DNA of 55,148 bases from a candidate division WOR-3 bacterium (GTDB lineage Bacteria; Hydrothermota; Tepidihabitantia; SM23-42). The stretch covers positions 1 to 55,148 of the forward strand of contig JAOUFJ010000017.1 of NCBI GenBank assembly GCA_029858255.1. The letters are read 5' to 3'. The translations under genes and the position numbers were made by a program. Below the pieces are notes generated by a model. The model was not told the DNA's origin. It ran no database searches and saw only the letters and a list, made by a program, of their open reading frames with translations. Every line of letters starts with the position of its first letter. The first letter of the stretch is position 1. Positions 15,633-44,540 of this stretch are shown piece by piece.

Positions 15633-15660
15633 TTGACTTGTTCGTGCCTATGTGTATAAT
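15633..15660 (+). promoter_or_regulatory. Leaderless promoter of the spt-like operon
   Basis: TTGACT (15633-15638), 16-nt spacer, perfect TATAAT (15655-15660), then 7 nt to ATG 15668. This is among the clearest examples of the leaderless arrangement in the window. Confidence 0.75.
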
Positions 15661-15667
15661 TGCCTAA

Positions 15668-16855
15668 ATGGATCTATTCAAGAAGTGCGATACAATCGTT
15701 AAAACGGTAGAAACAGCGAAGCAGTCAGGGATATATCCCTATTTCACGCCCATCGAATCCACCCAGGACCATCGTGTTAAAATTCATGGTGAGGAGTACA
15801 TCATGATCGGCTCAAACGGCTATCTTGGTCTTGCGGCTGATCCGCGGATGAAAGAGGCTGTTATCGATGCGGTGCGGAAATATGGTTCAACGTGTTCCGG
15901 GTCACGTTTTCTCAATGGGACGCTCGACATCCACTTAAAGCTGGAAAACGAACTCGCTGAATTCTTCAATAAGGGAGGGGCTGTTGTCTTTTCTACCGGG
16001 TTCCAGACCAATCTTGGTATCATATCCTCGATCGTCGGCAAGGATGACATTATTATTATCGACCGTCAAAATCATGCTTCGATCATCGATGGATGTCGTC
16101 TGTCATTCGGTGTTGTCAAAAAATATCCTCATAACAACATGGAGGAGCTTGAGCGGATACTCCAGTCTCTGCCGGACGATAAAGGGAAGCTCATTATCGT
16201 CGATGGAGTCTTCAGCATGGAGGGTGATCTGGCCAACCTCAGTGAGATTGTGCGGCTGAAAAAGAAGTATAATACCAGGCTCCTTGTTGATGACGCGCAC
16301 GGCATCGGAGTGCTTGGGGAGCATGGGCGAGGTGCCTGCGAGCATTTTGGAGTGTTAGATGATGTGGATCTGATAATGGGGACTTTCAGCAAAGCATTTG
16401 CGTCGCTCGGTGGTTTCGCCGTTGGGGAAAAGGATGTGATTACACACATAAAACACACGGCGCGGGCGTTGATCTTTTCAGCCAGCATGACACCTGCGGC
16501 GGTCGCGAGCGCTCAGTTTTCACTGGATATAATCAAGTCCGAGCCGGAACGTCGGCGTCGGCTCTGGGAAATAACCGAGCGTATATTAGAAGGTTTCAAG
16601 AGTATCGGACTCGATGTGGGGGAGTCTGAGACCCCGGTAGTGCCGGTAATCGTAGGCGCCGACGAGACCTGTTTCATGTTGTGGAAGATGTTATTTACCA
16701 ATCACGTGTTTGCCAATCCTGTGATATCTCCCGCGACACCTCCAGGCCGGGCGTTGATAAGGACCAGTTATATGGCAACACATACCGATGAAGACATAGA
16801 GATAGTACTCGATACTTTTGCCAAATGCGCCAGGGAAATCGGGTTGATAAAATGA
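15668..16855 (+). CDS. spt: Serine palmitoyltransferase-like PLP enzyme (alpha-oxoamine synthase family)
   Basis: 395 residues, PLP-dependent alpha-oxoamine synthase fold with catalytic Lys242 in GTFSKAF and cofactor residues in VDDAHGIG. Generic annotation would be 2-amino-3-ketobutyrate CoA ligase (Kbl) or BioF. The text is closer to bacterial serine palmitoyltransferase as I recall it: GSRFLNGTLDIHLKLE, VVFSTGFQTNLGIIS, NHASIIDGC and NPVISPATPPGRALIRTS. Spt condenses serine with an acyl-CoA or acyl-ACP to 3-ketosphinganine, the first step of sphingolipid synthesis. The stop overlaps by ATGA a large acyltransferase that could make the ceramide. No tdh (threonine dehydrogenase) or bio genes are adjacent. 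Confidence 0.65.
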   Translation: MDLFKKCDTIVKTVETAKQSGIYPYFTPIESTQDHRVKIHGEEYIMIGSNGYLGLAADPRMKEAVIDAVRKYGSTCSGSRFLNGTLDIHLKLENELAEFFNKGGAVVFSTGFQTNLGIISSIVGKDDIIIIDRQNHASIIDGCRLSFGVVKKYPHNNMEELERILQSLPDDKGKLIIVDGVFSMEGDLANLSEIVRLKKKYNTRLLVDDAHGIGVLGEHGRGACEHFGVLDDVDLIMGTFSKAFASLGGFAVGEKDVITHIKHTARALIFSASMTPAAVASAQFSLDIIKSEPERRRRLWEITERILEGFKSIGLDVGESETPVVPVIVGADETCFMLWKMLFTNHVFANPVISPATPPGRALIRTSYMATHTDEDIEIVLDTFAKCAREIGLIK

Positions 16856-17976
16856 TTTCGATTGTCCATGTCGGAAACGAAGAGCAACTCAAAGAATTCG
16901 TGGAATTCCCATATCAACTTTATAAGAATGATAGGTACTGGGTTCCTCCACTGAGGAAGGACGTGTATCATCTGTTCGATATGTCCCAGAATCCTTTCTG
17001 GGAGCATTCGGAGCGGGAGTTGTTACTTGCTTATCGAAAAGAACATCTGGTCGGTAGGATAGCGGCAATCGTGGACCGAAATTATGTTGAATGCTGGAAA
17101 GAGAACACCGGGTATTTTGGTTTCTTTGAATGTGAGAATGATGCCGAAGTAGCGCAGGCACTCTATGCAGCGGCGGGAAAATTCCACCGCGAAAAAGGTA
17201 TGGACAAATTCATAGGACCGATGAATCCGTCGACGAATGACGAATGTGGATTTCTGCTGGAGGGATATTTTTCGTCGCCCTTTATCATGATGACCTTCAC
17301 CCCAGAATACTACCACGATCTTGCACTGGCATCGGGCTTGAAAAAAGCCAAGGACCTCTACGCATATTACGTCAATACCGACGATGCACCGATCGAATAC
17401 CTTGAGCGTATCACATCCATCGTCCGCCGGCGCATCCAGGATATAAAAGTCCGTCCTGTTAACATGAATGATTTCTCGAATGAATTAAGAAAGATCCGCG
17501 AAATTTACAACGATGCTTGGAGTCCCAATTGGGGTGCTGTGGCGATGACCGAATCGGAATTCAAAGAAATAGCCAGGGTCCTCAAACCCCTGCTAGTGCC
17601 GGAATTAGTGATCGTAGTCGAGGTAAATAACATACCAGTTGGGGTATCGTTGAGCGTCCCCAATTATAATGAGGTATTGAAGAAGCTCAACGGCAATCTC
17701 GGTTTGATCGAGATGCTAAAATTCCTCTACTACAAACGGAAGATAACGGAAGTCAGACTCGTGATCATGGGTGTCCGTAAGGAATTTCAAAAAATGGGTC
17801 TGGAATCACTGTTATATCTGGAGTCCTTTAAGGCGGGTAAACGACTCGGGTACAAGGGAGGCGAACTTTCCTGGACTCTGGAGGACAATCACCAAGTCAA
17901 CAACGGCATCAAGAAAATGGGGGGGAAGCTTTACAAGAAGTGGCGTATCTATCAAGGTACGGTCAATCAACAATAA
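16852..17976 (+). CDS. Large GNAT-fold acyltransferase, candidate bacterial ceramide synthase
   Basis: 374 residues from ATG 16852, which overlaps the upstream stop as ATGA. An alternative start at 16825 lies inside that gene. The protein shows GNAT-like blocks: VGRIAAIVD, GYFGFFECENDAEVA, GPMNPSTNDECGFLLEGY, PEYYHDLALASGLKKAKDLYAYY, and a C-terminal acyl-CoA-binding-like region VIMGVRKEFQKMGLESLL. Similar proteins are usually annotated as hypothetical or GNAT acyltransferases. Bacterial ceramide synthase (bCerS) of Caulobacter is, as I recall, an acyltransferase of this superfamily and similar length. The tight coupling to an Spt-like gene suggests N-acylation of a sphingoid base. The function is inferred. 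Confidence 0.5.
   Translation: MISIVHVGNEEQLKEFVEFPYQLYKNDRYWVPPLRKDVYHLFDMSQNPFWEHSERELLLAYRKEHLVGRIAAIVDRNYVECWKENTGYFGFFECENDAEVAQALYAAAGKFHREKGMDKFIGPMNPSTNDECGFLLEGYFSSPFIMMTFTPEYYHDLALASGLKKAKDLYAYYVNTDDAPIEYLERITSIVRRRIQDIKVRPVNMNDFSNELRKIREIYNDAWSPNWGAVAMTESEFKEIARVLKPLLVPELVIVVEVNNIPVGVSLSVPNYNEVLKKLNGNLGLIEMLKFLYYKRKITEVRLVIMGVRKEFQKMGLESLLYLESFKAGKRLGYKGGELSWTLEDNHQVNNGIKKMGGKLYKKWRIYQGTVNQQ

Positions 17977-42500: not shown

Positions 42501-44540
<2,040 letters not shown>

What the first reader, a model, noticed from the sequence alone, without database searches (positions are those of the whole stretch)
15668..17976. Candidate sphingolipid pair: Spt-like enzyme coupled to a bCerS-like acyltransferase
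A PLP enzyme whose motifs (LNGTLDIH, VFSTGFQTNLG, NPVISPATPPG) look like serine palmitoyltransferase overlaps by ATGA a 374-residue GNAT-like protein. In Caulobacter the ceramide synthase is an acyltransferase of this superfamily. Default annotation would hide this as Kbl plus hypothetical. If right, this lineage makes sphingolipids with a compact two-gene core from one leaderless promoter.
Basis: partly seen in the sequence, partly recalled or inferred. Interest (0 to 1): 0.68.

Follow-up and report, generated by a model that had tools for sequence, protein, structure and literature searches.

The report
Ceramide-making enzyme pair in WOR-3 bacteria
Two overlapping genes in an uncultivated WOR-3 bacterium very probably encode the first two enzymes of bacterial ceramide (sphingolipid) synthesis, a known pathway that routine annotation would miss here, with the third enzyme encoded elsewhere in the same genome.

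Summary
Observation confirmed: a 395-aa PLP enzyme (15668-16855) overlaps by ATGA a 374-aa protein (16852-17976), behind TTGACT-N16-TATAAT ending 7 bases before ATG.
The PLP enzyme aligns without gaps to Sphingobacterium multivorum serine palmitoyltransferase over 379 residues, keeps its active-site residues, and groups with characterised SPTs apart from Kbl/BioF (100/97). The 374-aa protein is a tandem-GNAT acyltransferase, 31-38% identical end to end to GNATs of SPT clusters, including YghO, published as the ortholog of Caulobacter CC_1154 (bCerS). SPT and GNAT are adjacent in 54 of 55 relatives that have the SPT, and in 59 of 80 loci from many phyla, 46 of these with a CerR-like reductase. 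In this genome that reductase is unlinked (G000:C3, 275 bits against 124 for the next candidate).
Most likely: Spt makes 3-ketosphinganine, the GNAT N-acylates it, the CerR-like enzyme reduces it. No activity was measured. The lineage is candidate division WOR-3/Stahlbacteria. The pathway is known and widespread, so this is a new member of a known kind; the conserved leaderless, coupled spt-bcerS unit is the less expected part.

The parts
15633..15660 (+). sigma-70-like promoter TTGACT-N16-TATAAT; the predicted transcript starts at or within 1-2 bases of the ATG (leaderless)
   Evidence: 11 of 12 match; same arrangement in 21 of 21 order-level relatives
15668..16855 (+). spt: serine palmitoyltransferase-like alpha-oxoamine synthase, 395 aa; N50, S79, H136, S183, D208, H211, T239, K242, A272, R365 correspond to S. 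multivorum SPT N52, S81, H138, S185, D210, H213, T241, K244, A274, R367
16852..17976 (+). bcerS-like tandem-GNAT N-acyltransferase, 374 aa
16852..16855 (+). ATGA stop/start overlap; adjacency of the two genes kept in 54 of 55 class-level genomes that have this SPT

Best explanation
The pair encodes the first two, cytoplasmic steps of bacterial ceramide synthesis. Spt condenses L-serine with a long-chain acyl thioester (CoA or ACP, not known which) to 3-ketosphinganine. The tandem-GNAT enzyme, a bCerS homolog, then transfers a second acyl chain to the amine, giving 3-keto-(oxidised) ceramide. A CerR-like extended SDR encoded elsewhere (G000:C3:38640-39611) reduces it to dihydroceramide. The two proteins are made from one leaderless transcript with translational coupling through ATGA. 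Shown here: homology, active-site conservation, fold, gene linkage, promoter conservation and presence of the reductase gene. Inferred: substrates, order of reactions, the transcript start and coupling, and that the cell contains sphingolipids.
For: NCBIfam CFB-type SPT model 547 bits, against 295 and 369 for the two Kbl models. Gapless 379-residue alignment to S. multivorum SPT; the tree places it with characterised SPTs and apart from Kbl/BioF at 100/97. Substrate- and PLP-binding residues are kept, including the alanine that is Lys in the cysteate enzyme SulA. The GNAT is 31-38% identical over its full length to GNATs of SPT clusters in Rubrobacter, Streptomyces, Aureispira, Sphingomonas and E. 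coli; E. coli yghO is listed as the ortholog of Caulobacter CC_1154 (PMC9386255). SPT is adjacent in 59 of 80 GNAT loci from many phyla, 46 of these also with a CerR-like SDR, and in 54 of 55 WOR-3-class genomes that have the SPT. The own genome has one CerR-like SDR, 275 bits against 124 for the next, inside the SPT-linked SDR clade. It also has separate Kbl and Tdh genes. Tandem-GNAT fold, mean pLDDT 92.8, Z up to 24.5, with N-myristoyltransferases among lower matches.
Against: No lipid or enzyme data. The SPT scores below the curated NCBIfam cut-off (547 against 640). Alpha-oxoamine synthase homology cannot fix the amino acid used (serine, alanine or another). CerR-like genes are not perfectly co-inherited: no strong match in G035, G037, G052 and the g28 genomes that have the pair, and present in G006, which lacks the pair. 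The Caulobacter bCerS sequence was not compared directly, only proteins published or clustered as its orthologs.
Confidence: 0.87

Rival explanations
1. The same two-step chemistry with a different amino acid: the Spt-like enzyme uses alanine, glycine or another amino acid and the pair makes 1-deoxyceramides or amino-acid-derived ceramide analogues.
For: SPT accepts alanine and glycine weakly (PMC10196870, abstract), and the Black Sea study describes alanine use and hypothesises lysine use by Spt-like enzymes (PMC11334938).
Against: Serine-contacting residues of S. multivorum SPT (N52, S81, H138, with T241 and S185) are kept, and the enzyme is of the Bacteroidota-like SPT type.
Confidence: 0.08
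2. Sulfonolipid (capnine) synthesis: the PLP enzyme is a cysteate acyltransferase.
For: Same fold and superfamily; the cysteate enzyme in the PDB also matches.
Against: The match to the cysteate enzyme is far weaker (242 bits against 431 for SPT), and the SulA-diagnostic Lys is Ala272 here.
Confidence: 0.01
3. Threonine catabolism: the PLP enzyme is a Kbl (glycine C-acetyltransferase) and the GNAT is an unrelated acetyltransferase.
For: The superfamily is shared and Tdh exists in the genome.
Against: A genuine Kbl sits near Tdh on contig C15. The tree separates the two groups (100/97), and the window enzyme has the SPT-type GSRFLN motif where Kbl has SVRFIC.
Confidence: 0.01
4. The pair makes a secreted or signalling N-acyl aminoketone rather than a membrane sphingolipid.
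For: Some WOR-3-class genomes have the pair without a strong CerR match (G035, G037, G052), so N-acylated ketones could be end products there.
Against: CerR-like SDRs accompany the SPT-GNAT pair in 46 of 80 loci, and the window's genome has one.
Confidence: 0.03

Closest known systems
Caulobacter crescentus ceramide pathway (Spt CC_1162, bCerS CC_1154, CerR CC_1164)
   Same: Homologous Spt, tandem-GNAT acyltransferase and extended SDR; same proposed reactions
   Different: In Rhodobacteria cerS is said always to lie in another operon than spt, with dedicated AcpR and AasR (PMC11324152). Here spt and bcerS overlap, no acpR or aasR was seen beside them, and cerR is unlinked. The Spt is of the Bacteroidota-like type, not the alphaproteobacterial type.
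spt-bcerS-cerR clusters of Rubrobacter, Streptomyces, Aureispira, Ignavibacteria, Zixibacteria, Desulfuromonadota and others
   Same: SPT immediately followed by the GNAT
   Different: Those clusters mostly carry the SDR as well; in the window's WOR-3 lineage the SDR is elsewhere
Sphingobacterium multivorum serine palmitoyltransferase (PDB 8guh, 3a2b)
   Same: Gapless alignment over 379 residues, active-site residues kept
   Different: Organism and gene context; activity not measured here
E. coli (BL21/ETEC-type) sphingolipid locus with yghO
   Same: The GNAT is 32% identical over its full length
   Different: The E. coli locus has an acyl carrier protein gene, a fatty acyl-AMP ligase gene and lptFG

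Membership tests
Serine palmitoyltransferase (bacterial, CFB type) | Clusters with characterised SPTs apart from Kbl/BioF | tested here: met
   100/97; 99% of bootstrap trees
Serine palmitoyltransferase (bacterial, CFB type) | Catalytic and serine-binding residues (Lys244, His138, Asp210, His213, Asn52, Ser81, Thr241, Arg367 in S. multivorum numbering) | tested here: met
Serine palmitoyltransferase (bacterial, CFB type) | Curated NCBIfam NF047600 cut-off of 640 bits (a naming threshold, not a biochemical property) | tested here: not met
   547 bits. The other SPT models also fall short, as do all Kbl, BioF and HemA models, so automatic naming fails. I file it as SPT-like with predicted SPT activity, on the tree and residues.
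Serine palmitoyltransferase (bacterial, CFB type) | Forms 3-ketosphinganine from serine and an acyl thioester | not testable with these tools
   needs an enzyme assay
bCerS (bacterial ceramide synthase, CC_1154/YghO family) | Full-length sequence homology to recognised orthologs | tested here: met
   YghO 32%, E 9e-65; Sphingomonas cluster GNAT 31%, E 1e-61; YghO = ortholog of CC_1154 in PMC9386255. Caulobacter sequence itself not compared.
bCerS (bacterial ceramide synthase, CC_1154/YghO family) | GNAT acyltransferase fold | tested here: met
   tandem GNAT, pLDDT 92.8, Z up to 24.5 (rmsd 3.4, 303 aligned) to tandem GNATs
bCerS (bacterial ceramide synthase, CC_1154/YghO family) | N-acylates 3-ketosphinganine or sphinganine | not testable with these tools
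   needs expression and mass spectrometry
Bacterial ceramide pathway | CerR reductase encoded in the genome | tested here: met
   G000:C3:38655-39608, 275 bits against 124 for the next SDR; inside the SPT-linked SDR clade, though branches within that clade are poorly resolved and co-occurrence with the pair is imperfect
Kbl (glycine C-acetyltransferase) | Scores over TIGR01822/NF005394 and groups with Kbl | tested here: not met
   295 and 369 bits against cut-offs of 493 and 460; tree
SulA (cysteate acyl-ACP transferase) | Lys at SulA position 281 | tested here: not met
   Ala272 in the window enzyme

The most novel reading that the evidence does not exclude
The overlapping, leaderless spt-bcerS unit, with SPT and GNAT kept adjacent through nearly all of this class while the reductase is unlinked or undetected in some genomes, reflects a pathway in which N-acylation directly follows condensation (the disputed bacterial order), and some WOR-3 lineages without a strong CerR match (G035, G037, G052) carry 3-keto-ceramides as end-product membrane lipids.
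Probability: 0.15. Interest if true: 0.6.

Novelty: new member of a known kind. Interest (0 to 1): 0.38.

Why it matters
It gives an uncultivated candidate phylum a concrete, testable membrane-lipid trait and shows that curated names miss it: the SPT falls under its cut-off and the acyltransferase has no family model. The tight spt-bcerS coupling outside Proteobacteria bears on the unsettled order of bacterial ceramide synthesis and limits to Rhodobacteria the statement that cerS is always in a separate operon. bCerS-like proteins with no SPT nearby, for example in a Cloacimonadota genome that encodes SPT on another contig, offer a candidate for the ceramide synthase reported as not co-localised in that phylum.

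Tried and rejected
Kbl, BioF and SulA identities for the PLP enzyme were tested and rejected. A 15-sequence GNAT alignment was too diverse for the collection scan; a 7-sequence one worked. Pfam and NCBIfam give no hit for the GNAT. No RNA family at gathering threshold in the window, so no known riboswitch control. A literature search for WOR-3 with sphingolipids found no paper in the held library, and one for BtaA with ceramide found nothing relevant. L047 as CerR was checked for co-occurrence with the pair and does not show it perfectly; I keep it as the likely CerR because of its clear score gap and its place in the tree. Flanking genes in the window were not analysed further, since the neighbourhood changes between WOR-3 families while the pair stays together.

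Full report
What is there. The two open reading frames are as described: 15668-16855 (395 aa) and 16852-17976 (374 aa), sharing ATGA. A near-consensus promoter, TTGACT-N16-TATAAT, ends 7 bases before the first ATG, so the message should have no leader. The same promoter, with TTGACT and a spacer of exactly 16 in every case and 5-8 bases from TATAAT/TATACT to the ATG, stands before the orthologous gene in 21 of 21 order-level relatives; base-shuffled controls reach a score of 10 or more in 1.5% of cases. It is not kept in most of the more distant families, several of which have Shine-Dalgarno-like sequences instead. Two other genes of the window (starts at 42534 + and 42449 -) have the same type of site, so leaderless starts look common in this lineage rather than special to the operon.

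The lineage. Relatives of the window's genome coincide in coordinates or contig length with records titled candidate division WOR-3 bacterium (G012 = CP070834.1, G047 = CAIPLT010000043.1) and Candidatus Stahlbacteria (G018 = JAUVZL010000008.1).

First enzyme. NCBIfam gives 547 bits to the CFB-type serine palmitoyltransferase model, 401 to a second SPT model, and 369 and 295 to the two Kbl models; none passes its curated cut-off, so automatic naming would be generic. S. multivorum SPT, whose structures are solved, aligns over 379 residues without a gap. Residues reported to hold PLP and serine in that enzyme (PMC10196870) are all kept: N50, S79, H136, S183, D208, H211, T239 and K242 here. The conserved superfamily arginine is R365, and the position that is Lys in the cysteate enzyme SulA (PMC9304779) is Ala272. 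In a 45-row tree it lies among SPTs, including two with solved structures, apart from Kbl and BioF (100/97), in a clade of WOR-3 sequences (94/95). The genome has a genuine Kbl (L001, 622 bits against a cut-off of 493) and, about 2.4 kb away on the same contig, a Tdh over its cut-off. The window enzyme is therefore not needed for threonine catabolism.

Second enzyme. Pfam and NCBIfam do not recognise it. It is 38% identical end to end to a GNAT of Rubrobacter, 36% to one of Streptomyces, 33% Aureispira, 32% E. coli YghO and 31% Sphingomonas, all encoded beside or near SPT genes. PMC9386255 lists yghO (ECD_02850) and CC_1154 together as the acyl-CoA N-acyltransferase (aca) of dihydroceramide synthesis; CC_1154 is the Caulobacter ceramide synthase (PMC11324152). 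A profile of the family reaches GNAT structures at its C-terminal part, and the AlphaFold model (mean pLDDT 92.8) is a tandem GNAT, closest to MAB_4324, glucosamine N-acetyltransferase and mycothiol synthase, with N-myristoyltransferases lower in the list. In a tree of the family the window protein lies in an SPT-linked lineage; a separate clade (95/98) of mostly SPT-unlinked paralogs exists in WOR-3 and other phyla.

Linkage. Reading the coordinates together, 55 of 61 genomes have this SPT, and in 54 the GNAT is immediately downstream (overlap to about 110 bases, or a longer gap in the broken or paralog-bearing cases G019 and G043); in G055 the two are on different contigs. Across genome collections, 59 of the 80 best GNAT loci, from phyla including Desulfuromonadota, Nitrospirota, Elusimicrobia, Zixibacteria, KSB1, Gemmatimonadota, Caldiserica, Ignavibacteria, Bacteroidota and Acidobacteria, have SPT next to it, and 46 of these also have a CerR-like SDR. 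In PMC11324152 cerS is said always to be in another operon than spt; outside Rhodobacteria that does not hold.

Third enzyme. A profile of 22 SPT-linked SDRs finds one clear match in the window's genome, G000:C3:38655-39608 (275 bits; next 124). All five reference SDRs tested have it as best match among the genome's epimerase-type SDRs, and it falls inside the SPT-linked SDR clade against sugar-nucleotide SDRs (100/99), although branches within that clade are poorly resolved. Its start shows no signal peptide by eye, whereas Caulobacter CerR is reported as periplasmic (PMC11087976). Co-occurrence is imperfect: G035, G037, G052 and the g28 genomes have the pair without a strong CerR match, and G006 has the SDR without the pair.

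How it most likely works. Spt and the bCerS-like enzyme are made together from one leaderless, translationally coupled message; Spt makes 3-ketosphinganine, the GNAT N-acylates it, and the unlinked reductase finishes dihydroceramide. The coupling of Spt with the acyltransferase rather than with the reductase fits the acylation-before-reduction order argued from Caulobacter localisation (PMC11087976), but gene order is weak evidence for reaction order, and in many other phyla the SDR is in the cluster too.

Novelty. The pathway and its breadth are known: the Black Sea study reports Spt-like proteins in MAGs of 38 phyla and raises the known potential producers to 40 phyla (PMC11334938). I found no paper on sphingolipids in WOR-3 in the held library, but supplementary tables of that study were not readable here, so WOR-3 may already be among its phyla. 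I rate it a new member of a known kind, of moderate interest.

Noticed in passing
L118:1863-8189 (G007), L117:5793-11096 (G003), L116:5719-8777 (G012): Relatives carry further lipid operons with no counterpart seen in the window's genome (no DUF3419 there): in G007 a second SPT-like gene with a DUF3419 (BtaA-like) gene, a GNAT, UbiA and a diacylglycerol-kinase-like gene; in G003 a bCerS-like paralog overlapping by ATGA a PEMT-DUF3419 fusion, with a lipid kinase beside it; in G012 a second SPT with UbiA and kinase. This suggests an aminocarboxypropyl or betaine-type head group on a ceramide; no paper linking BtaA with ceramide synthesis was found.
   Followed up: partly
window 42534 (+) and 42449 (-), also upstream of 15668: Several genes of the window start 5-7 bases after TTGACT-N16-TATAAT/TAGAAT with no Shine-Dalgarno sequence, so leaderless transcripts are probably common in this lineage.
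   Followed up: partly
L142, L144, L151, L158, L111, L112, L113: A clade of bCerS-like GNATs without a neighbouring SPT occurs in WOR-3, Cloacimonadota and Zixibacteria. The Cloacimonadota genome of L142 encodes SPT (53% identity) on another contig, so that phylum may have an unlinked bCerS.
   Followed up: partly
L119:1065-7840 (G032), L126:3845-9335 (G028); G042:C155:2323-6421, G044:C258:2957-6933: Arrays of several CerR-like SDRs (six in a row in G032), and separate tandem arrays of three divergent bCerS-like GNATs, in one WOR-3-class family.
   Followed up: no
G006 (same genus), L125: A 94% complete genome of the same genus lacks both spt and bcerS yet keeps the CerR-like SDR, so either the pair was lost or the SDR has another role.
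   Followed up: no
L006:1444-2541 (G000:C20): A divergent 365-aa alpha-oxoamine-synthase-like protein, far below every family cut-off, is encoded next to a large ORF that looks SecA-like; function unknown.
   Followed up: no
L060:7968-9125: The bCerS-like gene of Roseomonas plasmids is annotated as dATP pyrophosphohydrolase or hypothetical protein, an evident misannotation, in a cluster with LptF/LptG, a CDP-alcohol phosphatidyltransferase and a nucleotidyltransferase.
   Followed up: partly
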